Assembly: GCA_022496185.1 (NCBI GenBank)
Contig: WTXG01000404.1
Span: forward strand, 1-25,424
Direction: 5' to 3'
Length of the DNA stretch: 25,424 nucleotides
DNA from: Multifurca ochricompacta
Taxonomy: Eukaryota > Basidiomycota > Agaricomycetes > Russulales > Russulaceae
Position 1 is the first letter of the stretch, and every line of letters begins with the position of its first letter. A program made the translations under genes and the position numbers. Under the pieces are notes generated by a model. The model did not search any database, was not told the origin of the DNA, and saw nothing but the letters and a program-made list of their open reading frames with translations. Of the stretch, positions 2,381 to 24,938 are shown piece by piece.

Positions 2381-2867
2381 TGTGAAACAGGCATGAGGCA
2401 CAGCATACTGACTCTGACCTAGACAAAGAAAGTTACTTCAGAGGTTAGAAGAACTCTATTAACTATACTACTGACCTAGACAAAGAAAGTTCTATATAAG
2501 AACGTTAGTCTAATAGTAAAGTAGATAGTAAAGAATGGAACTTACACTTCAGAGGTTAGAAGAACTCTGAAGTGGAAGAGACGAAACAGACACCCTTATA
2601 TACATCTCCAAGGGATGGTCTGTGCACTGGGAATAAGTCCACAAGTGCCGGACAAAGTCCAAACAACAAACAGAGGGAGAAAGGCCATTGGCCACTACAG
2701 AAATCACATGTTACATGGTGTATCAGTCAGCTACTGCGGAATGTGAGAAAGAAAGTAATAATGATAATGTAAATAGTCTGAAACTCCGGTATCTAATCTA
2801 ATCTACAAAGTAGCTAATCTAATCACCTGATGCCTGAAGCATCACCGAACATCTTCTGTGTTCAACA
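2381..2867 (-). mobile_element. Solo LTR, intron-bearing LTR family (iLTR copy 1)
   Basis: This 487-bp unit is the reverse complement of the family also found at 6459, 13479 and 22332. On its own strand it starts TGTTGAACACAG and ends TGTTTCACA, with a 5-bp target duplication CTTGG on both sides (2376-2380 and 2868-2872; CCAAG on the element strand). It carries GGCCAATGGCC and TATATAAG (plus coordinates 2595-2602), as expected of a U3 promoter. No internal region or coding sequence is attached, so it is a solo LTR. Its U3 and outer U5 resemble copy 2, while its R-region block (linker GTCAGTAGTATAG) resembles copy 3, so it looks mosaic. It sits inside TGGCC-rich low-complexity DNA. Copia versus gypsy cannot be decided. 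Confidence 0.88.
2492..2545 (-). other. Predicted 54-nt intron inside iLTR copy 1
   Basis: On the minus strand the segment starts GTAAGT, contains GACTAAC and ends ATATAG. Its flanks (2546-2569 upstream and 2476-2491 downstream) recur at 2435-2457 and 2419-2434 joined directly, without this segment. The splice signals and the exact absence both point to a spliceosomal intron. Confidence 0.75.
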
Positions 2868-3335: not shown

Positions 3336-4323
3336 ACCATCAAATGGATGGCCATTACTGTAAAATGGATGGTGTGCAGCACTACTAAATAGGTAAAGAT
3401 ACTACTATAGTGGGGGAGTTTTGGTGGCTTAATGATAAGATTAAAGCTCATTCAGTCAATGCTGTCCATGCCATCTAATGCCATCAACAGCCATTTTTTT
3501 GACAGTTTGGACAGTGTTTTCTGTACCCATCTACCATCCATCTTGACATTGACTTAGAGCTTGGTATGGCATGGGTACAGCAACTGTACTATGGACCCAT
3601 CCATACCATGAGGTACAGGTATGGTGCACAGCCCTAAACATAACAATTCATGTGGCTTTTCCTTTTGTTGAGCTTGACTGGTAATTTCTTTAATATATTA
3701 TATTATATTCCTCTGATTTATTCATGCTAGATATCAAAAAACATTGCACACATATATTATCATGTAAACTGCTTATGAAATAATGTCAGTATTATTTGAA
3801 CTATCTGGGCACCACTACTGTGAACTAGTGAATGCAATTCACCCAGCAGTTTGACAAATCACATGATGTAAAGTAAATAACAGCAAACTCTGTTGAACCA
3901 AGATAGTGGTACAAGAGGTTCTGGGATAGCGGTTTGACATGATTACGATCACACATAGATAACACAACTCAAAAACACATTCATCTAAGATCTGACATGT
4001 GATCAAATCATATCATTAGATGAGATAACTCAATAACACATTCATTTAAACCAGTAGCCAATATAGTACATAGATCTGCTATAGATAAAGCAGTTGCTAT
4101 CACATTATTGACTACAGCTAAGCCTCTAAGTCTAATCAAGGTGAGATAGCTAGCAGTGATGTAGCAAGCTGCACTATGCCTGTTCCACACATGATGTACA
4201 TAGAGACAAACAATACATTGTTGATTGTTTTGACAGATGTTCCAATACTCGGTTAGATCAATTGATCCCAGCTATCAACACCCATCCTAACACGCCTCAC
4301 TTCTCCCGAGCCCACCTCATAGC
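3336..4323. other. Non-coding AT-rich DNA, likely 5' flank of the MULE element
   Basis: No ORF with recognisable content. 3360-3640 has short diverged repeats (ATGGATGG, CATGGGTACA). An approximate direct repeat around AACACATTCAT occurs at 3956-3990 and 4021-4050. The MULE terminal inverted repeat should lie here or further left, but its partner end is outside the window, so I could not find it. Confidence 0.4.
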
Positions 4324-4325
4324 TA

Positions 4326-5915
4326 CAGTGGGTCAAAAAACTGTCCCAATGTTTGCACCATTTCTAGTATTCACTCTATAGCACCTCAGCATTTAGGAAT
4401 CTGGTTATGGTGTGGCTGTATGTCTGAATGCCCTGCGTCCTGGCTACCATGCCCAATTTGGATCAAAGAAATTGGCCATGATATAAGCATTTTATGATCA
4501 AATCAAATCAATCAATCATCGGGATGGTTTTTTGACCCACATTTTAAATCCACTATCTGCCCAATTACTCCTTTTTTTCACCCCTTTTTGCCTTGGTAAC
4601 TCCTTGAATCCTTTTAGTCATTCTTTCTATAACCTTTTGCCATCATTCTGGTGCATTTTTATTCCACTCCTCCACCACCCTCCCCTGCAACTCAGGTATC
4701 CCTTGACTGGTTAAGAACCTTCTTCAGATCCACCCAGAGGTGTCCAATGGGGCTAATATTTCAAGGGATTGGGCTATCCATACCAGGCTTCAATATTCCT
4801 GTCTTAAAACTGCTGGCTTGCCTTCTTGGAATTGTGTTTTGGGTCATTGTCCCACTGAAACATGCTTTCACCCTCCACCATTTCTTACTTTTCAAACCTT
4901 TCCACCACTCTGCCATCCAAAATATCATAGTACTGGCATGGATTCATGATCCCATAAACCCCTGTAAGCATTCCTAGTCCATTCCACCCCATACAAGACC
5001 AATACCATAAGTTCTTCCTCCTCCATGCTTGACTGTCAGGGTGGTGGTTCTGTCAGAGAGTGGTTACCATGAAAATTGGACAGTGGATGACTTGAAAAGG
5101 ATCTTGTGGTCAGGTGAGACTATAATGAACAGAATTGGTTCAGACAGAAGGAGCTACACTTGGGAAAAATAAGGGAGAACCACCCTCTGACAGAACCACC
5201 ACCCTGACAGTCAAGCATGGAGGAAGAACTTATGGTATTGGTCTTGTATGGGGTGGAATGGACTAGGAATGCTTACAGGGGTTTATGGGATCATGAATCC
5301 ATGCCAGTACTATGATATTTTGGATGGCAGAGTGGTGGAAAGGTTTGAAAAGTAAGAAATGGTGGAGGGTGAAAGCATGTTTCAGTGGGACAATGACCCA
5401 AAACACAATTCCAAGAAGGCAAGCCAGCAGTTTTAAGACAGGAATATTGAAGCCTGGTATGGATAGCCCAATCCCTTGAAATATTAGCCCCATTGGACAC
5501 CTCTGGGTGGATCTGAAGAAGGTTCTTAACCAGTCAAGGGGATACCTGAGTTGCAGGGGAGGGTGGTGGAGGAGTGGAATAAAAATGCACCAGAATGATG
5601 GCAAAAGGTTATAGAAAGAATGACTAAAAGGATTCAAGGAGTTACCAAGGCAAAAAGGGGTGAAAAAAAGGAGTAATTGGGCAGATAGTGGATTTAAAAT
5701 GTGGGTCAAAAAACCATCCCGATGATTGATTGATTTGATTTGATCATAAAATGCTTATATCATGGCCAATCTCTTTGATCCAAATTGGGCATGGTAGCCA
5801 GGACGCAGGGCATTCAGACATACAGCCACACCATAACCAGATTCCTAAATGCTGAGGTGCTATAGAGTGAATACTAGAAATGGTGCAAACATTGGGACAG
5901 TTTTTTGACCCACTG
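4326..5915. mobile_element. Tc1/mariner-derived foldback (palindromic) transposon
   Basis: The element is bounded by TA dinucleotides (4324-4325 and 5916-5917). Its inverted ends read CAGTGGGTCAAAAAACTGTC, the usual CAGT start and TA target of Tc1/mariner elements. The inverted repeat covers almost the whole element: arms of about 740 bp (4326-5065 and about 5178-5915) around a spacer of about 112 bp. I saw only a few differences between arms, for example A/G near 4472 and a 1-bp C indel near 4700. Each outer 215-bp piece also has an inward-facing copy of the terminal motif (GTGGGTCAAAAAAC around 4531 and 5701). The element lies 7 nt upstream of the MULE start codon. Transcripts of it could form a long hairpin. 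Confidence 0.88.
5066..5705 (+). pseudogene. Decayed Tc1-family transposase, catalytic-domain fragment
   Basis: Conceptual translation with stops and frame breaks gives fragments typical of Tc1 DDE transposases: WTVDDLKRILWSGET, IGSDRRSYTWEK, a GMGWNG-like stretch, QWDNDPKHNSKKA and WTPLG. The WSGET stretch corresponds to the family's WSDET, so the first catalytic Asp appears replaced by Gly. The DNDPKH Asp is kept. The N-terminal helix-turn-helix region is absent. Upstream of the spacer lies only an inverted copy of the distal half, antisense at 4540-5065. Several stops make it non-coding. The long minus-strand ORF over 5263-5709 is just the antisense of this fragment. Any movement of the element would need transposase supplied in trans. 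Confidence 0.8.
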
Positions 5916-6631
5916 TATCTAGAGATGGCAGAGTCAAAGAAGTGTGCAAAATGCAAGAAGTCCCTAGGCCTTGAAAAATTTCCACTGATGGCAAATGTTT
6001 TAACATGCAGCACAACATGTTCTCTCTGCATGATAAAGGCAAAAGGCAATAGACAGGCCAAGAAGAACTTGGAGAAGGTTCAGAACTTTGAAACTAATGG
6101 GGTTCAGGATGTGTCAGATGAAAGCTTATCTGTCTTGCCACTAAATGAATATTTGACTTTCCTGGGAAGGCAGAAAGTTGTGATCAAGGTCGAAGCAAAT
6201 GTGAATATCAAGGATTTAGTGGGTTACACTGTTAGGAGGGAGCACACAGATGCCATTGTCAATCTGATGTGGGAAGTGATGAGTTATCAGTTCCTGTGCA
6301 TAACACTTCTTTCTTTTCATTACAAAATTATGAATCTCTTCATATCAGTTACCAGAGTAAATATGACCACAAACGATCTGCAGGCACATCAACATGTTAC
6401 ATATACAATTGTGCCCAAAATACCAATTGGCAGCATGCCTCATCAAAGAGCCACCAAGTGTTGAACACAGAAGATGTTTGGTGATGCTTCAGGCATCAGG
6501 TGATTAGATTAGCTACTTTGTAGATTAGATTAGATATCGGAGTTTCAGACTTTTACTATATCTTTATTACTTTCTTTCTCACATTCCACAGTAGCTGACT
6601 GATGCACCATGTAACATGTGATTTCTGTACT

Positions 6632-6760
6632 GGCCAATGGCCTTTCTCCCTCATGTTTACTGTTTGGACTTTGTCCGGCACCTGTGGACTTATTCCCAGT
6701 GTGCACAGACCATCCCTTGGAGTATATAAGGGTGTCTGTTTCGTTCTCTACACTTCAGAG
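6632..6760 (+). promoter_or_regulatory. LTR U3 core promoter (iLTR copy 2)
   Basis: A CCAAT-type box within GGCCAATGGCC (6632-6642) lies about 80 bp upstream of TATATAAG (6723-6730). Both are conserved at matching positions in the other three copies. An AGAG at 6757, 34 nt after the first T of the TATA box, is a candidate transcription start. It is also exactly where homology with the downstream intron-less repeat begins. Confidence 0.6.
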
Positions 6761-6779
6761 TTTTCTTCACCTCTGAAGT

Positions 6780-6834
6780 GTAAGTCCCAGTCTCTCTACT
6801 TACTACCTTACCTATAACTAACCGTCTTCTATAG
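6780..6834 (+). other. Predicted 55-nt intron inside iLTR copy 2
   Basis: The donor is GTAAGT, a branch-site-like ATAACTAAC lies about 20 nt from the end, and the acceptor is TATAG. The flanking exons (6757-6779 and 6835-6848) recur fused as 6868-6890 plus 6891-6904, precisely lacking this segment. Confidence 0.8.
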
Positions 6835-7793
6835 ATAACTTGTTCTAGGTGTGTAGTATAGTAATACAGAGTTTTCTTCACCTCTGAAGTATAACTTGTT
6901 CTAGCTTAACCCGCTAACCACACAGTCAGTATGCTGCGCCTCATGCCTGTTCAACACCAAGAAGGTGTCAAAAATTGTGATAAAGAATCAATGGAAACCT
7001 TTGACTGCTCTGGTTGGATACATATAACCTTATCCAACCATTCTAATGTCATCTTCATTAAATTAACACACTGTGAAGATCATGTCCCATATTGGCCTAT
7101 TGATATCCCAGAAGAAGTTGAGCAATACGTCCAAATTAACCTCAAATTAACCCCAACGCAGGTAAGTAAACATCATTGGGTCTTGTCTACAAAATATTCA
7201 CACCTTATAATAAGCTCTGGACTGAGATTCTGAAGAAGCATCCAAAGCCGTCCTTCACGCGCAAATCCATCTATCAATTATGGTCACAAATGTCCAGTCG
7301 TACCTGGAAAAGGGATGAGGATGAAGTCCAGTCAGCACAGCTGCTTCTTGAAGAGTTTAAAATGCCATCACCAGATCGCCTGTACACCATGTAATCAATA
7401 CCCATTGAAGAGGATGAGGGCATCACAGTTATTGCATTTGCACTACCTGAAATTCTTTGCCAATGGGGAGGGCATCTCTGTGAACTACAGTTAGATTCTG
7501 CATGTGAGTCTTGCATTTACAAATAACAACTTGAAGCTGACCTGACAATGGCCAGGGAACACAAATGGAGTGCATTTTGAAGTTTTTGTGCTTCTCAGTG
7601 AAATCTATGGGTCAGGGTTACCTCTTGGATATCTCCTGATTCAGTCAAACATTGGTGAACTGGGAGCCAAAGAACTATTTATCAGCCATTTCATTTCATA
7701 CATCAACAATCATTGGAATTTGCAGATTATTTTTACACTTACAGACAAGGATTGGTCAGAAATAAATGCATTTATTGCTGTCATACCAGATGC

Positions 7794-8445
7794 TGTAAGG
7801 ATGGCTTGGGCGTTGGACGCGAAACCTCCGGTCATCACCACTTCTGGCAGGACCCGTTTGCTCTCATTCTTCCATACTATACTGTCAATAAATTTTCTAA
7901 CATTTGCCTGACTTTAGTTTCGGACAGACTCTGACACCGGTGCAAAGCGTGATTGATCTATGGTACAAGTAATTTTACTTAGCATATTACAGGGATTGTG
8001 CGCGTTCCGGGCCGCCTGCCTATTCTTTTCCGTACACCCGGCTACCCGGTTTCTCCCTTACTCCCTTTTACTTATTCCACTTTCGTTCACCCCACATGGC
8101 TTCACCTCTGTTTATTTTCTAAAACTTTCCTTCAGCTAGGTCTCTCCACAAGTATATAAAGGTACATACAATGCTTGTAGTAGACCAGCCAGTGAACAAG
8201 CAACCTAGGAATCTCTCTCTCTCTCTCTTTTCTCTTCTTGTGTGCTAAAGAACCTCAACATCGTCCAGTGCAAGGTCAAACGGAACCAGCAAGCACGTAT
8301 TTGCAAGTTCAAAAAGTACAACGACATCTCTCCTTTGACATCAAAGTTATCCTGGGTTTCTTCCTTCCTCCTCTCTCCTCTGTCTCTCTCTCTCCTCTTG
8401 GGAAACGCACTTTGCCTCTTACTCACTGCGGACCACGTCCGTACA
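7794..8445 (+). repeat. Gypsy-A 5' LTR (652 bp)
   Basis: Starts TGTAAGGATGG and ends GTCCGTACA. TATATAAAG at 8153-8161 is followed by a CT microsatellite (about 8212-8228). Against the 3' LTR I count 11 substitutions, all at CpG/TpG/CpA positions, plus one 5-bp indel. ORFs within (about 8205-8477) recur in the 3' LTR and are shadows. Confidence 0.92.
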
Positions 8446-13478: not shown

Positions 13479-13988
13479 TGTTGACACAGGATGTGTCTGG
13501 AGATGCTTCAGGCATCTAAGGTTCGCTTCAGCTGTAGATTAGATTAGATTAGATATCGGAGTATCGGACTTTTTATGTTATCTTTATTACACTTCTTTCC
13601 TTCTTACTCAGCTGATTAGTGATGGACTTAGTAATGCGCAGTAAGCATGTGATATCTCTTTGGCCAATGGCCTTTATCCCTCTCTGTTTATTGTCCGGCA
13701 CTTGTGGACTTATTCCCAGTGCGCACAGACCATTTCCCCTGGCCCCTATGGGTATATAAGGGTGTCTGTTTCGTCTCTTACACTTCAGAGTTCCTTCTAT
13801 CTCTGAAGTGTAAGTCCCATTTACTTTACTCTCTACTTCCTTTAGACTAACGCTCTATGTAGTACTTGTCTTTTCTAGGTCAGTAGTGTAGTAATATAGA
13901 GTTCCTTCTATCTCTGAAGTTACTTGTCTTTTCTAGCCTCACCGCTACTAACCACAGTCAGTATAACCAGCAGCATGATTGTTTGACA
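13479..13988 (+). mobile_element. Solo LTR, intron-bearing LTR family (iLTR copy 3), at an RT deletion
   Basis: Starts TGTTGACACAGG and ends TGTTTGACA, about 510 bp, with TATATAAG at 13753-13760 and the same CCAAT/TATA/hairpin layout as the other copies. Unlike copies 1 and 2 there is no target duplication: the left flank is CGCAA and the right flank GCCCG. RT coding is missing between the flanks. This fits recombination between two LTR insertions, or an insertion with a deletion. Its R-block sequence differs clearly from copies 2 and 4 (loop TTCCTTCTAT, exon TACTTGTCTTTTCTAG). Confidence 0.85.
13810..13862 (+). other. Predicted 53-nt intron inside iLTR copy 3
   Basis: GTAAGT donor, GACTAAC branch-like motif, ATGTAG acceptor. 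The surrounding exons (13787-13809 and 13863-13878) recur joined at 13898-13920 plus 13921-13936. Confidence 0.8.
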
Positions 13989-16334: not shown

Positions 16335-16367
16335 CCGGGGACAGTCAAATTTGAACCCCCCAGGAGA

Positions 16368-17024
16368 TGTAAGGATGGCTCGGGCGTTGGATGCGAAACC
16401 TCTGGTCATCACCACTTCTGGCAGGACCCGTTTGCTCTCATTCTTCCATACCATACTATACTGTCAATAAATTTTCTAACATTTGCCTGACTTTAGTTTC
16501 AGACAGACTCTGACACTGGTGCAAAGCGTGATTGATCTATGGTACAAGTAATTTTACTTAGCATATTACAGGGATTGTGTGCGTTCCGGGCCGCCTGCCT
16601 ATTCTTTTCCGTACACCCGGCTACCCGGTTTCTCCCTTACTCCCTTTTACTTATTCCACTTTCGTTCACCCCACATGGCTTCACCTCTGTTTATTTTCTA
16701 AAACTTTCCTTCAGCTAGGTCTCTCCACAAGTATATAAAGGTACATACAATGCTTGTAGTAGACCAGCCAGTGAACAAGCAACCTAGGAATCTCTCTCTC
16801 TCTCTCTTTTCTCTTCTTGTGTGCTAAAGAACCTCAACATCGTCCAGTGCAAGGTCAAACGGAACCAGCAAGCACGTATTTGCAAGTTCAAAAAGTACAA
16901 CGACATCTCTCCTTTGACATCAAAGTTATCCTGGGTTTCTTCCTTCCTCCTCTCTCCTCTGTCTCTCTCTCTCCTCTCGGGAAACACGCTTTGCCTCTTA
17001 CTCACCGCGGACCACGTCCATACA
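16368..17024 (+). repeat. Gypsy-A 3' LTR (657 bp)
   Basis: Preceded by CCCCCCAGGAGA, where a polypurine tract is expected (the tract itself is weak). It contains an extra CATAC-like 5 bp at about 16450 relative to the 5' LTR. It ends GTCCATACA, followed by the TSD ATGC and MULE sequence. Confidence 0.92.
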
Positions 17025-17028
17025 ATGC

Positions 17029-17517
17029 AAAGCATCAAATTTGCTATTGGCATGCCATCTGAGCGGTCAAGATGTGCTTGTCAACCCTATGACGTGCCCC
17101 AGCACCCTATAATGTCAAAGTTGCAAAAGCTGAGTTCAGCTGGATTGACGAATCATTCATCCCGGTTCATCAATCTAGTGATAAGGTTTGTGTCCGCATG
17201 CATCGCATTTAAAATTCATTATGACAAAAATCAACAGCCTGGAACACATTATGTTGCTATGAAAGCAATTCCTCAACTTTTGGTATGCCTAAACAGAGTC
17301 TTACAAACACTCAATATGCCTCCAAAGGAGCAGCTAACCATCCAAATTCCCCCAATCCCAATATCTGATGTATCCTGGCTACCCACCACTGACTCCGATC
17401 CATCTCCATCAATTAATGAGGGGGTTGAGGTGGATCTTGACGGGTTGTCAGATGAGGGCAGCGATCTAATAGACAAGCTTGATGAATGGCTTGGTTCTGA
17501 TTCAGATCCAGGCTCCA
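17029..17517 (+). pseudogene. MULE-type transposase, middle part (exons 4-5)
   Basis: Continues exon 4 directly after Gypsy-A with CYWHAI (17042-17059), the C-x-W-H motif of MULE transposases. The family continues with Arg-Ala-Val-Lys, but here TGA stands for Arg at 17060-17062, and a second TGA at 17090-17092 also replaces a probable Arg; both fit CGA to TGA. AEFSWIDESFIPVH follows. Intron 4 is 17186-17237 (GTTTGT...CAACAG). Exon 5 is acidic (VDLDGLSDEGSDLIDKLDEW), the variable linker of the family. It is cut by Gypsy-B inside a Lys codon, which is completed by 21201-21202. Confidence 0.78.
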
Positions 17518-18017
17518 TGTCACAGTTAGGTGCGGAACTGTGTCGGGGTCGGACGGGAGCAAGTCTTCCAAGGCAAGGTTCAAAGTTACAATAGAGTCAA
17601 GATCTAGTCAAGCCCATGACGAAGTCAGAGGGCACGCATGTGAGATTCGAGGTCGACGGCAGAGACTCTAAGTCCTGCAACAAGTTCAAGATGATGAAGG
17701 CTCTCCAAGTCACATCTTGGAGAGTTCAAGTGGGGTTCTAACTGAGAGGATTCAAGGATTCCGAAGCACCTCTGATTGAACACAAGAGAACAGACTTAGT
17801 CTGTCTCTCTACTCTAGTAGGTCTTTAAATACATGTAGTTCTAGCTATGTCATAGTAAATAGAAGGTTCTAGTTCTATGATATAATATCTAAATGGTTGT
17901 GCAGTAGAACGAGCTAGAACTAAGGAGAATTAGGAGGGGTTAGGCCCTCAGTAAGCAAAACACCAGTGAAACACAATATCGAGTCATTAGTAACGTTGCA
18001 GGGAGAATTCTGTCACA
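17518..18017 (-). repeat. Gypsy-B left LTR (3' LTR of the element)
   Basis: On the minus strand it runs TGTGACAGAATTC to CTAACTGTGACA. A perfect 9-bp hairpin CTCTCCAAG/CTTGGAGAG lies at 17701-17724. TATTTAAAG (complement of about 17825-17833) is a possible TATA box. ORFs here are duplicated in the other LTR and are not genes. Confidence 0.9.
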
Positions 18018-19545: not shown

Positions 19546-20695
19546 GTGGCTAGGTCATCGATGTTTCCTTCCCTCTTCAAAGCAAGGATGTGGGTAATTC
19601 AAGACCGTTTGTTCTGGATGGTCGTGGAATCGGATCTATAGGTGAGTTTAATCCCGCTCCTTTCCGGGGCAATTCTAATTGCTTCGAGTTGCCTTCTAGT
19701 TTTCGGGTGTACTTGGTGTCGAGTGTTTCTGTACCAGTCCTCTGCAATTCTTAGGCTGTCGATAAGGAACCTAATATCCTTTGGATGGTATGTCTTCTTT
19801 GTGGATTCTAACCACTTGGTGTTCTTCTTTAGATGTATAGTGATGTTATCGACGGCGCGGGCTTGGGATGTCAAACCGGGACTTCGGAGTCGCGGTGTCA
19901 AGTTTCTTTTTGATGGATTCGATGGTCTGTTCGTGAAGCAAGGTAGCTTCAAGTTGGGGTTCAAGGACTCTGGGTTCACAGGTCCGTTACTCTGGACGCT
20001 GTCGGTCGGGGATTGCTGACGAGCAATGTAAGGCGGTTTTGGTTTTCAGGTGGTATGTCTTCAGTTTCAGTTTTAGATTTTGATCCGGTGATTGATATTC
20101 AAGGAACGCGTCGTCCGTTAAAGGCGCTTTTCAGGTTCCGGAGTTGGTGTTCGGGTTCGATGGTGTCTGATGTCAGGGCGTCCTCTATCGCGAGAACAGC
20201 AGGTCGATTACGGGGATCGACTAGAGCGTCATCAGTTTCAAGATCAGGGGTCGGGTTCGTTGTCGAGGCAAGGGACGCGTCGTCGTCGCCTTGTGGGTCA
20301 GGTGAGTCGCTTTTCTTCTTAGGTTCTGACTCTTCTGTCAGGTTTCGATGTGGAGGTCGGTCTTCAAAAGACGTGTCCCTTCAAGGTCGGGGTTCGGGGT
20401 TCTTGCGCGGACATCGCGACTTTCTGGTTTCGGGATTCTTGCGCGGAATAAGATATCGCGGCTTTCTGGGTTTCGGGATTCGTGCGCGGAATAAGACGTC
20501 GCGGCTTTCTGGGTGTCGACCAATGGTCTATCTGTGAAGCAAGAATGCTCCAAGTCTGGATTCAAGTAAATCTTCTGTGGTTCTGGGGGCTGGCGGTTGA
20601 AATCGTGGGGGTCTGGTTGTCGGGGCGAGGGACGCGTCGTCGTCGCCTCGCGCGTTCGGTAAGTCGTTCATTGGTTTCGGTTAAGTCTGTTCTAA
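19546..20695 (-). other. Gypsy-B 5' internal region, possible gag remnant
   Basis: Minus-strand open stretches at 19599-19979 and 20338-20565 are basic and Pro/Ser/Arg-rich, without a zinc knuckle or recognisable capsid motif. Position between 5' LTR and pol remnant suggests gag-derived or leader sequence. Two segments about 590 bp apart (19930-19975 and 20525-20570) resemble each other (GTGAAGCAAG...TTCAAG), so part of the region is duplicated. I could not identify a primer binding site next to 20695. The plus ORF at 20013-20537 is antisense. Confidence 0.4.
20398..20518. repeat. Minisatellite, about 40-45 bp unit, three copies
   Basis: Units share TGCGCGGA, ATCGCG or GTCGCG, and CTTTCTGG followed by TTTCGGGATTC. 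On the minus strand they encode a repeated Arg/Pro-rich peptide (RARIPKP type). Confidence 0.75.
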
Positions 20696-21195
20696 TGTCA
20701 CAGTTAGGTGCGGAACTGTGTCGGGGTCGGACGGGAGCAAGTCTTCCAAGGCAAGGTTCAAAGTTACAATAGAGTCAAGATCTAGTCAAGCCCATGACGA
20801 AGTCAGAGGGCACACATGTGAGATTCGAGGTCGACGGCAGAGACTCTAAGTCCTGCAACAAGTTCAAGATGATGAAGGCTCTCCAAGTCACATCTTGGAG
20901 AGTTCAAGTGGGGTTCTAACTGAGAGGATTCAAGGATTCCGAAGCACCTCTGATTGAACACAAGAGAACAGACTTAGTCTGTCTCTCTACTCTAGTAGGT
21001 CTTTAAATACATGTAGTTCTAGCTATGTCATAGTAAATAGAAGGTTCTAGTTCTATGATATAATATCTAAATGGTTGTGCAGTAGAACGAGCTAGAACTA
21101 AGGAGAATTAGGAGGGGTTAGGCCCTCAGTAAGCAAAACACCAGTGAAACACAATATCGAGTCATTAGTAATGTTGCAGGGAGAATTCTGTCACA
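20696..21195 (-). repeat. Gypsy-B right LTR (5' LTR of the element)
   Basis: Same length as the left copy, with two CpG-type substitutions between them. The hairpin recurs at 20879-20902. It is followed by TSD CTCCA and the MULE exon. Confidence 0.9.
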
Positions 21196-22331: not shown

Positions 22332-22816
22332 TGTTGACACGGCATGTGTCTTGAGGTGCTTCAGGCATCTAGGTTAGGGTCTAAGCTGTGCAAGATTAGA
22401 TTAGATATAGATTCGGAGTTCCAGACTTTTACCATATCATTATTACTTTCTTTCTCGCAATGCGCAGCAGCTGACTGATGTACCTTAGTAATCCTGTGTA
22501 GCATGTGATATCTCACTGGCCAATGGCCTTTGTCCCTCAGTAGTACATTCTAGTGCATTCCATTGCACACAGACCATCCTTTAGAGTTATATAAGGAGGT
22601 CTAATTCGTCTCTTACACTTCAGAGTTTCCTTCACCTCTGAAGTGTAAGTCCCAGTCTCTCTACTTACTACTTTACCTATAACTAACCGTCTATTGTAGA
22701 TAACTTGTTTCTAGGTGTGTAGTATAGTAATATAGAGTTTCCTTCACCTCTGAAGTATAACTTGTTTCTAGCCTTACACGCTAACATCCAACAGTCAGTA
22801 TCACTGTGCGCACATG
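22332..22816 (+). mobile_element. Solo LTR, intron-bearing LTR family (iLTR copy 4), cut by Gypsy-C
   Basis: Starts TGTTGACACGGC in MULE exon 6 (left flank AGATT). It has GGCCAATGGCC, TTATATAAGG (22587-22596) and the duplicated R block. Sequence stops matching the family at 22816, where Gypsy-C begins, so the last few bases (expected GTGTCAACA) and the right TSD should reappear beyond the window. Whether an internal region follows cannot be seen, so 'solo' is an assumption from the other copies. Confidence 0.85.
22645..22699 (+). other. Predicted 55-nt intron inside iLTR copy 4
   Basis: GTAAGT donor, ATAACTAAC motif, TTGTAG acceptor. The flanking exons (22622-22644 and 22700-22714) recur joined at 22734-22756 plus 22757-22771. 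Confidence 0.8.
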
Positions 22817-23441: not shown

Positions 23442-24938
23442 TCAGAGGTGTGGGGGTCTAGGCAGGGTGGGGTGTCGATGATGGAAGTCCTGAAGCAGGG
23501 TCATGGCATTCTTCATTTCAGTGAAGGGGACCCACGAGTTTTCTGAGGCAGGGTAGCCCTTCCATTTGACAAGGTAACGGATGCCCTTTCTGTTAGGGGT
23601 GTGAGCAGACTGTAAGATGGTCTCTATCTCATAATGGTCTTCTTCCCCATTCACAAGTTCTGGTGGTGGTCGAGTGAAGTTGGGTCCATGGACTGGGGTT
23701 TCTTTGTAATGGGACAGGAGAGAGTTGTGAAAGACTGGGTGGATGCGCCATGACTTAGGGAGTTCAAGCTTGCAGTTAACAGGGCCAGAATGTATGACTT
23801 TAAAAGGACCATGACGTCGGGGGCTGAGTTTGGCTTTGGGGTGAGTGGTGCATATATTTGTCCCTTCCAACCAAACCAGCTCCCCTGTTTTGAAAGCATG
23901 GAGGGGTCCATCTGGTCTCGACTGTTTCATGAGTTCTGCAGCCACCTGGAGGGCAGCAGCTACTTCACTACGGATAGTTTCTAGGGTGCGGAGTCTTTCT
24001 TCAACTGACAGGATAGGGGTGGCAAAATGGAGTGGGGGAATAAACTCTGGTTGGAAGCCATACCAGATTTCAAAGGGAGATCTTTTAGTAGCACTGTGAG
24101 TTCTAGCATTGTGGGCGAACTCCATAAAGGGGATCAGTTCTGCCCAGTCATCTTGTTGGAAGTTGCAAAAGACACGGAGGTATTGTTCTAGTTCTTGGTT
24201 GACCTGTTCAGTCTCTCCATCAGTCTGGGGGTGATAGGCAGTGCTCAAGGATGATTGTACTCCTAGCTTGCTCCACATTTCCTTCATGACTTTGGATGCA
24301 AACTGGGGGCCTCGATCAGAGATGACTTGGTCTGGGAGGCCAGTGCGTCTCCATACATGTTCAAGGAATAGTTTGGAGGTTTCTGGGGCAGTGATATCTT
24401 TGGTGCAAGGAACAATGATGGTGGCTTTACTGAACCGGTCCACCACCACAAAGAGGGAGTCGTATGACTGAGATAGGGGTAAGTCTGTGATGAAGTCCAT
24501 GGTGATTGTTCCCCATACTCGAGTTGGAACTTGATTGGGTTGCAGAGGGATGGGTAGTCAAGGTCGAACTTTGGTTTCTTGGCAGGTGGCACATCCATCC
24601 ACATATTCTTTGACAAAGGAGGACATTCCTGGCCACCAAAATTCTCGTGATACTAGTTCATAGGTCTTCCATCTGCCTGGATGTCCTGTGGCAATGGAAT
24701 CATGATGTAACTTTACAATGTCTCTTCGTAGTTCTTGGGACTTGGGGATGTAGACTTGGCCTTTATGTAGGATTAGGCCATTTTCTAGGTTCCAGTCTTC
24801 CAGTCCTTTGGCAAGGGAGTGTGGCCCATTGTGCAAGATGGTGGTCAGGGCTTGGGTGACTTCATTGTCATGGTCTTGGCAGTCTTTGATTCTGTGGTGT
24901 AGAGTGGAGTCATGAGTTGTTGTGACTGTGGTTTTCAT
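23442..24938 (-). pseudogene. Gypsy-C integrase and chromodomain
   Basis: A single minus-strand frame. HHCC zinc domain: LHHDSIATGHPGR and CATCQ (about 24560-24740). The DDE core is intact: Asp in TMDFITDLP, Asp in VISDRGPQF and Glu in DGETEQVNQ, followed by NARTHSATKRSPFE. GPY/F-type motif in SPRRHGPFKVI. C-terminal chromodomain with YEIETIL, LVKWKGYP and NSWVP, keeping the aromatic residues that normally bind methylated histone tails. The stop is at 23442-23444. One TGA (complement of 24558-24560) interrupts between the zinc domain and the core at VRP-stop-LPIPL; a CGA to TGA change would explain it. Chromodomains are thought to direct such elements to H3K9-methylated chromatin. Confidence 0.88.

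What the first reader, a model, noticed from the sequence alone, without database searches (positions are those of the whole stretch)
6723..6904. LTR family carrying a spliceosomal intron next to its own spliced duplicate
Seen directly in four LTR copies (2381-2867 minus, 6459-6956, 13479-13988, 22332-22816). Downstream of the TATA box lies exon A, then 53-55 nt with a GTAAGT donor, a CTAAC branch-like motif and an AG acceptor, then exon B. After an 18-nt linker (ending GTAATA in copies 2-4) comes exon A fused directly to exon B with the intron exactly missing. The downstream copy begins at AGAG, about 34 nt from the TATA box, where transcription should start. The duplicate therefore looks like the 5' end of a spliced transcript written back into the LTR. 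Inference: template switching during strong-stop cDNA synthesis or first-strand transfer on spliced RNA. I know of no described LTR with this layout.
Basis: partly seen in the sequence, partly recalled or inferred. Interest (0 to 1): 0.92.

Follow-up and report, generated by a model that had tools for sequence, protein, structure and literature searches.

The report
Retrotransposon LTR rewritten from spliced RNA
More than a thousand end repeats of one jumping element carry a short predicted intron followed by a second, intron-free copy of the exon next to it, and because in about nine of ten sampled repeats the intron-free copy matches the repeat's own exons even where repeats differ from each other, it is likely written anew from spliced RNA at each jump, which would let an intron survive a replication route expected to erase it.

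Summary
The layout is real. A 15-base exon/intron signature occurs 1,460 times in the window's genome (control 0); 1,052 sites fit a strict pattern running from the donor through the linker to the start of A'. The units are LTRs of a Ty1/copia retrotransposon (RVT_2, integrase before RT, 5-bp target duplications). In 100 parsed copies exon A equals its duplicate A' in 94 and exon B equals B' in 90 (both in 88), despite 16 A and 40 B variants (shuffled means 12.6 and 4.5). On a tree of the rest of the LTR, B and B' change together (46 and 46 steps, 49 jointly). So the duplicate is not one old accident; its age is about that of the insertion carrying it.

Best model: transcription starts at AGAG; two tandem introns (i1, and i2 = linker+A'+B') leave the 5' leader; strong-stop cDNA of A-B-U5 lands on A'-B' of the unspliced 3' LTR RNA and overwrites it. 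A 10-14 bp U3/exon A hairpin would hide the i1 donor only in the 3' copy. No RNA data were available, and recombination inside the LTR remains a rival. My ten paper searches showed no precedent, judged mostly from titles and abstract starts.

The parts
6459..6956 (+). solo LTR copy 2, flanked by CCAAG on both sides
6725..6730 (+). TATAAG promoter motif, copy 2
6751..6756 (+). CACTTC: U3-side arm of the hairpin that can pair with the end of exon A and the i1 donor (copy 2)
   Evidence: 99 of 100 copies have CACTTC here; hairpin and accessibility predicted; function inferred
6757..6779 (+). exon A, copy 2; likely transcription start at 6757
   Evidence: start site inferred
6780..6834 (+). intron i1, copy 2 (GTAAGT / CTAAC / TAG)
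   Evidence: splicing inferred
6835..6848 (+). exon B, copy 2
6849..6904 (+). predicted intron i2 = linker + A' + B', copy 2 (GTGTGT ... TTCTAG)
   Evidence: motifs; splicing inferred
6868..6904 (+). A'-B', intron-free duplicate and proposed landing site, copy 2
   Evidence: identical to A+B
2381..2867 (-). solo LTR copy 1, flanked by CCAAG on both sides
2546..2568 (-). exon A, copy 1
2492..2545 (-). intron i1, copy 1
2476..2491 (-). exon B, copy 1
2419..2475 (-). predicted i2 (linker 2458-2475, A' 2435-2457, B' 2419-2434), copy 1
13479..13988 (+). LTR copy 3, inside a gypsy-type element
13787..13809 (+). exon A, copy 3
13810..13862 (+). intron i1, copy 3
13863..13878 (+). exon B, copy 3
13879..13936 (+). 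predicted i2 (linker 13879-13897, A' 13898-13920, B' 13921-13936), copy 3
22332..22816 (+).
22622..22644 (+). exon A, copy 4
22645..22699 (+). intron i1, copy 4
22700..22714 (+). exon B, copy 4
22715..22771 (+). predicted i2 (linker 22715-22733, A' 22734-22756, B' 22757-22771), copy 4

Best explanation
Each intact LTR of this Ty1/copia retrotransposon carries exon A, a 49-57 nt stretch with intron signals (i1) and exon B, followed by an intron-free copy A'-B' that matches its own A and B in about nine of ten sampled copies, and A'-B' is likely rewritten in each replication cycle by strong-stop cDNA of the spliced 5' leader. Steps: (1, inferred) transcription starts at AGAG; (2, inferred) i1 and a second intron i2 (linker+A'+B') are spliced from the 5' leader, leaving A-B-U5-PBS; (3, inferred) in the 3' LTR RNA, U3 sequence upstream of the start site folds onto the end of exon A and the i1 donor, so i1 stays in; (4, inferred) strong-stop cDNA of A-B-U5 pairs with the 37-41 nt A'-B' in the 3' LTR RNA and is extended through linker, B, i1, A and U3, so the intron is kept and A'-B' is overwritten. 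Shown directly: the layout, the concerted A/A' and B/B' identity, edges at the expected start site and at splice-like signals, the low within-copy divergence, and the sequence of the hairpin arms.
For: Layout genome-wide. In 100 parsed copies A=A' in 94, B=B' in 90, both in 88, against means of 12.6 (max 25) and 4.5 (max 12) in 2,000 shuffles; 16 A and 40 B variants. Tree of U3+i1, 97 copies: parsimony steps B 46, B' 46, joint 49; A 27, A' 25, joint 27; controls U5 (first 14 nt) 68 and linker 46 give joint 81 and 65 with B. Within-copy A-B versus A'-B': 12 edits in 3,811 nt (0.31%, 98 copies) against 15.3% between copies; the two LTRs of one insertion differ by 13 substitutions in 4,846 columns outside CpG (0.27%) plus 7 gap events (10 pairs). 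Left edge at the expected start site: A is preceded by CACTTC in 99 of 100, A' by T in 81, C in 15, A in 3, G in 1. i1: GTAAGT in 100 of 100 (the parser asked for GTAAG), a YTRAY motif in 100, TAG in 98. i2: 55-61 nt, linker GTNNGT in 100 (asked for by this parser, not by that), B' ending TAG/CAG in 98 of 98 uncut (the parser favours AG). i1 donor region -3..+6: mean unpaired probability 0.415 in RNA starting at AGAG, 0.180 in read-through 3' RNA, 0.345 with shuffled upstream; 3' below 5' in 91 of 100 and below shuffled in 91 of 100; arms of at least 10 bp in 98 of 100. LTRs expected from partial splicing or mis-landing exist: intron-free A-B (24 sites; 9 read to A-B-U5, one more), A-i1-B-U5 (L066, L080), doubled units (L078, L079), A-i1-B-L-A-B-L-A-B (L083).
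Against: No RNA, start-site or cDNA data. The variant LTRs can also come from DNA recombination between A and A' or B and B'. A branch-like motif for i2 is not uniform among B types. The i2 donor is not specially hidden by i1 (own 0.242; shuffled i1 0.261, own lower in 55 of 100; i1 of another class 0.261, own lower in 58 of 100), so retention of i2 in the 3' RNA has no structural explanation. The promoter end is conserved as a whole (most positions from TATA to -1 at 0.94-1.0), so conservation of CACTTC alone does not prove the hairpin; there is no covariation. Element L021 has 5' and 3' LTRs that differ in B and B' together, which needs conversion or two RNA templates. L026 and L033 show B different from B' in both LTRs, so the mismatch was probably there at insertion. 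Within-copy divergence (0.31%, indels counted) is slightly below LTR-LTR divergence if the 7 gap events are added (4 of the 7 lie in L021); sampling by an exact exon A end may cause this, but weak conversion is not excluded.
Confidence: 0.72

Rival explanations
1. One founder event wrote a spliced duplicate into an ancestral LTR, and A/A' and B/B' have since been inherited independently.
For: Explains the layout and its exact edges.
Against: Would give independent drift; instead B and B' change together (46, 46, joint 49 steps) and within-copy divergence is 0.31% against 15.3% between copies.
Confidence: 0.03
2. The duplicate arose once and is kept identical by DNA gene conversion or unequal recombination inside each LTR after insertion.
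For: Deletion and expansion products between the direct repeats exist; L021 shows a concerted difference between LTRs of one insertion; within-copy divergence is slightly below LTR-LTR divergence if gaps are counted.
Against: Needs steady conversion of separate tracts of about 15 and 23 nt around an intron without moving the intron: an A-B-linker unit with GAAGT was found 0 times against 806 B-linker sites (control 4); one GAAGC case lies in an expanded unit (L083); the only two sites with the exact i1 signature in two successive units are whole-unit duplications.
Confidence: 0.13
3. Only i1 is spliced; strong-stop cDNA of A-B-L-A'-B'-U5 lands on A'-B', making an expanded LTR that later contracts by slippage, so no second intron is needed.
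For: One LTR with exactly that expanded form, A-i1-B-L-A-B-L-A-B-U5 (L083).
Against: The expanded form was met once while concerted identity is the rule; the linker head changes little (9 steps) while its tail changes about as often as B (43 steps), as expected for a donor site.
Confidence: 0.08
4. Identity of A-B and A'-B' is held by selection, because strand transfer needs complementarity, rather than by rewriting.
For: A transfer site must match the strong-stop cDNA end under any strand-transfer model (established knowledge).
Against: Dozens of joint changes, including length changes of B (14-18 nt), would need matching double mutations.
Confidence: 0.04

Closest known systems
Ty1/copia (Pseudoviridae-type) LTR retrotransposons
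   Same: Gag_2, zinc knuckle, integrase before reverse transcriptase, RVT_2, 5-bp target duplications, LTRs with PBS and PPT.
   Different: LTR holds a predicted intron plus its spliced duplicate; none of the titles and abstract starts listed by my ten searches describes such an LTR.
BARE1 and copia subgenomic splicing (PMC3735527, passages seen)
   Same: Copia-type elements with alternative splicing and separate RNA pools.
   Different: The BARE1 intron lies at the end of gag, and the paper says replication must avoid reverse transcription of spliced RNA; here the spliced leader is the proposed template of the LTR.
Split-intron retroviral vectors (PMC3182074, passages seen)
   Same: A splice signal placed in the LTR so that RNA is processed differently after reverse transcription.
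   Different: Engineered, donor only in the LTR with the acceptor downstream; no spliced duplicate and no rewriting.
Reverse transcription of spliced HIV-1 RNA (PMC1868081, abstract) and effect of the start site on strong-stop transfer (PMC4668388, abstract and first paragraphs)
   Same: Spliced RNA can be reverse transcribed; the exact 5' end affects first-strand transfer.
   Different: There the R repeat is not split by an intron (recalled).

Membership tests
Ty1/copia LTR retrotransposon | RVT_2 reverse transcriptase | tested here: met
   PF07727 E 1.8e-50 (L032) and 2.5e-82 (L023)
Ty1/copia LTR retrotransposon | integrase upstream of reverse transcriptase | tested here: met
   PF13683 residues 11-66, PF07727 residues 365-605 of one open frame
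Ty1/copia LTR retrotransposon | LTR pair with PBS, PPT and 5-bp target duplication | tested here: met
   10 pairs, 8 of 10 with identical 5-bp flanks; 28 of 34 LTRs next to neither PBS nor PPT too
Ty1/copia LTR retrotransposon | tRNA primer match | tested here: inconclusive
   PBS GGTTATGGGCCCTG resembles the complement of the initiator tRNA anticodon half (recalled); two patterns for it found nothing in the assembly
Spliceosomal intron (i1) | 5' donor, branch motif and AG acceptor at host-like size | tested here: met
   gaps under 100 nt between neighbouring actin-family matches of the genome run from 31 to 64 nt, 3 of 8 being 53-55 (my count; match edges are rough)
Spliceosomal intron (i1 and i2) | removal from RNA | not testable with these tools
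   no RNA reads at hand
Spliceosomal intron (i2) | donor, branch motif and acceptor | tested here: inconclusive
   GTNNGT and AG constant; a branch motif is not uniform among B types (read off)

The most novel reading that the evidence does not exclude
A retrotransposon with a spliced R repeat: it replicates through a leader from which two tandem introns have been removed, rewrites the spliced record into its LTR every cycle, uses that record as the landing site that saves the intron from loss, and tells its two identical ends apart by a hairpin whose one arm lies upstream of the start site and so exists only in the 3' RNA copy.
Probability: 0.5. Interest if true: 0.95.

Novelty: new variant of a known kind. 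Interest (0 to 1): 0.88.

Why it matters
Reverse transcription of spliced RNA is expected to erase introns, and a paper on BARE says retrotransposons must avoid it to replicate (PMC3735527, passage). Here an intron appears to persist in more than a thousand LTR copies because the element re-creates a spliced twin as a transfer site. If right, genomic LTRs archive the start site and splice junction of each round, which makes RNA processing of a retroelement readable from DNA alone, and it gives a natural answer to how two identical ends of one RNA can be processed differently.

Tried and rejected
Masking of the i2 donor by i1: tested by folding; unspliced 0.242, i1 removed 0.315, i1 interior shuffled 0.261, i1 of another class 0.261; not supported. 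Initiator tRNA as primer: two patterns, no hit. The signature in IMG/VR contigs: 0. Naming the host through pol relatives: the 120 listed of 6,337 hits did not name it. Pfam on the RNase H-end piece of L021: 0 families. A one-off founder duplication: rejected. The U5 motif CTAAC...ACAG as acceptor of i2: considered; it would drop the start of U5, which the LTRs keep, so it is not favoured for the template RNA. The between-copy rate (0.259) and its within-copy count (22) came from MAFFT placing gaps badly; replaced by edit distance (0.153; 12). The pattern for A-i1-B-U5 found 2 sites, of which one (L082) is an ordinary copy.

Dropped rows: of 63 planned windows around the first 100 of 1,460 listed sites, 60 were fetched. 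Of 115 TATA-anchored hits, 100 were parsed; the 15 others are 8 antisense hits of the hairpin (L014, L017, L022, L025, L026 twice, L028, L068), 5 interrupted or cut copies (L024, L027, L030, L031, L070), one LTR without L-A'-B' (L066) and one intron-free LTR (L037, the same copy as L069). LTRs without TATAAG were not counted. The tree leaves out 3 of the 100 (damaged B or B' end) and the clock 2; the extra AG at the edge of A' in three copies (L010 twice, L011) was collapsed for A' in the tree and the clock.

Full report
Check of the observation. The window is contig C340 of an unnamed 53.8 Mb, 605-contig genome. The signature CTCTGAAGTGTAAGT (end of exon A plus donor) occurs 1,460 times and its reversed control never; 1,052 sites fit a stricter pattern that also demands an exact linker core and the start of A' at the right distance. 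B' and U5 are not part of that pattern.

What the units are. From 60 fetched windows around the first 100 listed sites, the window itself, five loci of the first search (L004-L008) and nine short pieces (L069-L077) I found 115 TATA-anchored hits and parsed 100. 92 could be delimited as LTRs; 30 are followed by GGTTATG (PBS), 28 are preceded by an AGGGA tract (PPT), 34 have neither, and 28 of these 34 have identical 5-bp flanks. Ten full-length pairs, 8 of 10 with identical 5-bp flanks, differ at 43 of 5,024 positions, 30 of the 43 at CpG, with 7 gap events; one pair is identical over 503 nt (L037). Open frames hold Retrotran_gag_2, zinc knuckle, Pol_BBD and RVT_2 (L032), and integrase before RVT_2 in one frame (L023): a Ty1/copia element.

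The key finding. Exon A has 16 forms and exon B 40 forms in 100 copies, yet A=A' in 94, B=B' in 90, both in 88. Three of the six A misses carry an extra AG at the left edge (L010 twice, L011), and two of the ten B misses are B' cut by other DNA (L039, L058). Shuffling partners gives 12.6 and 4.5 on average. On a tree from U3 and i1 (97 copies) B changes 46 times, B' 46 times and the pair 49 times; A 27, A' 25, pair 27. Control pairings of B with U5 or linker give 81 and 65. A-B and A'-B' of one copy differ by 12 edits in 3,811 nt (0.31%, indels counted), A-B of one copy and A'-B' of another by 15.3%, and the two LTRs of one insertion by 0.27% substitutions outside CpG plus the gap events. The duplicate is therefore about as young as the insertion that carries it; A was sampled by an exact end, which lowers the first figure somewhat. 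No A/A' or B/B' mismatch is shared by different elements in this sample. L026 (both LTRs: B ...TTATAG, B' ...TTTTAG) lies between relatives with TTTTAG in both (L014, L017) and TTATAG in both (L028), which fits B changing first and B' following, though other histories are possible.

Edges. The left edge is AGAG, 32 nt after the start of TATAAG in the four window copies. Upstream of A stands CACTTC in 99 of 100; upstream of A' stands T in 81, C in 15, A in 3, G in 1. C there (14 of 97 copies) takes 12 steps on the tree, which may reflect starts one base earlier. The right edge is the end of B, where the linker begins with GTNNGT in all 100 (this parser required it; that did not and showed the same). 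B' ends in TAG or CAG in 98 of 98 uncut copies. Linker+A'+B' is 55-61 nt, much like i1 (49-57 nt). A second intron thus explains why the copied piece is exactly A-B followed by U5.

Why the intron would survive. In RNA that starts at AGAG the i1 donor region has a mean unpaired probability of 0.415; with 60 nt of U3 in front, as in the 3' LTR, 0.180; with those 60 nt shuffled, 0.345; 91 of 100 copies are lower in the 3' form. The arms (CACTTCAGAG with CTCTGAAGTG, up to 14 bp) reach at least 10 bp in 98 of 100. This is prediction. A similar idea for the i2 donor failed. Retention of i2 in the 3' RNA may follow from the tiny exon B being usable only after i1 is out, or from polyadenylation before the end of i2; both are inference.

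By-products. Genome-wide, U3-A-B without i1 occurs 24 times for B of the AACTTG type, the type of 62 of 100 parsed copies. Nine read by letter continue straight into U5 (L069-L077); two such LTRs on C246, 5,964 nt apart on one strand, are likely one full-length element (L081 with PBS; L074). A-i1-B-U5: L066 and L080. A doubled A-i1-B-L unit: L078 and L079. A-i1-B-L-A-B-L-A-B: L083. Each is what a differently spliced or differently landed strong-stop would leave, but recombination between the short repeats would leave the same, so I give them little weight. A-B-linker with GAAGT is absent against 806 B-linker sites (control 4).

What is known. My ten full-text searches listed no paper whose title or abstract start describes this layout; three searches found nothing at all, two lists were cut (12 of 15, 10 of 23), and the library lacks most subscription journals. 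I looked inside five papers: PMC3182074, PMC9278108 and PMC3735527 by passages, PMC4668388 and PMC1868081 by abstract and outline. The nearest ideas are BARE1 splicing, engineered split-intron vectors, reverse transcription of spliced HIV-1 RNA and start-site effects on strong-stop transfer. Asymmetric LTRs, with a proposed mechanism using two RNA copies, are described for HIV-1 and may bear on L021.

Verdict. The layout and its concerted renewal are shown; spliced-leader copying with landing on A'-B' is the best reading (0.72), the hairpin switch the boldest part.

Noticed in passing
window 4320-5921: Near-perfect palindrome of about 1.6 kb: arms of 383 nt (99%) and 322 nt (100%) around a 197-nt spacer.
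   Followed up: no
window 17517-17816 and 20695-20994: Identical 300-nt direct repeats 3,178 nt apart, looking like the LTRs of a short element; of ORFs of at least 140 aa, one search lists only two (156 and 174 aa) wholly between them.
   Followed up: no
window 7786-8171 and 16360-16750: LTR-like pair of a gypsy-type element (protease and RNase H domains); LTR copy 3 sits in it without matching flanks, and part of the reverse transcriptase region there looks missing.
   Followed up: partly
window 23442-24500, minus strand: Integrase plus chromodomain ORF of a second gypsy-type element.
   Followed up: partly
L021, LTRs at 740 and 6738 (minus strand): 5' and 3' LTRs of one insertion (same CAATT flanks) differ in B and B' together, and in i1 and U5, while U3 is identical: two RNA templates or conversion.
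   Followed up: partly
L021, L023, L032, just after the PBS: A branch-like ACTGAT and an AG follow the PBS within about 50 nt; splicing to it from the leader could make an mRNA without PBS.
   Followed up: no
U5 of many LTRs: CTAAC...ACAG followed by TCAGTA, a further 3' splice-site-like motif, recurs in U5.
   Followed up: no
window 2381-2867 and 6459-6956: Two solo LTRs about 4 kb apart in opposite orientation are both flanked by the same 5-bp CCAAG.
   Followed up: no
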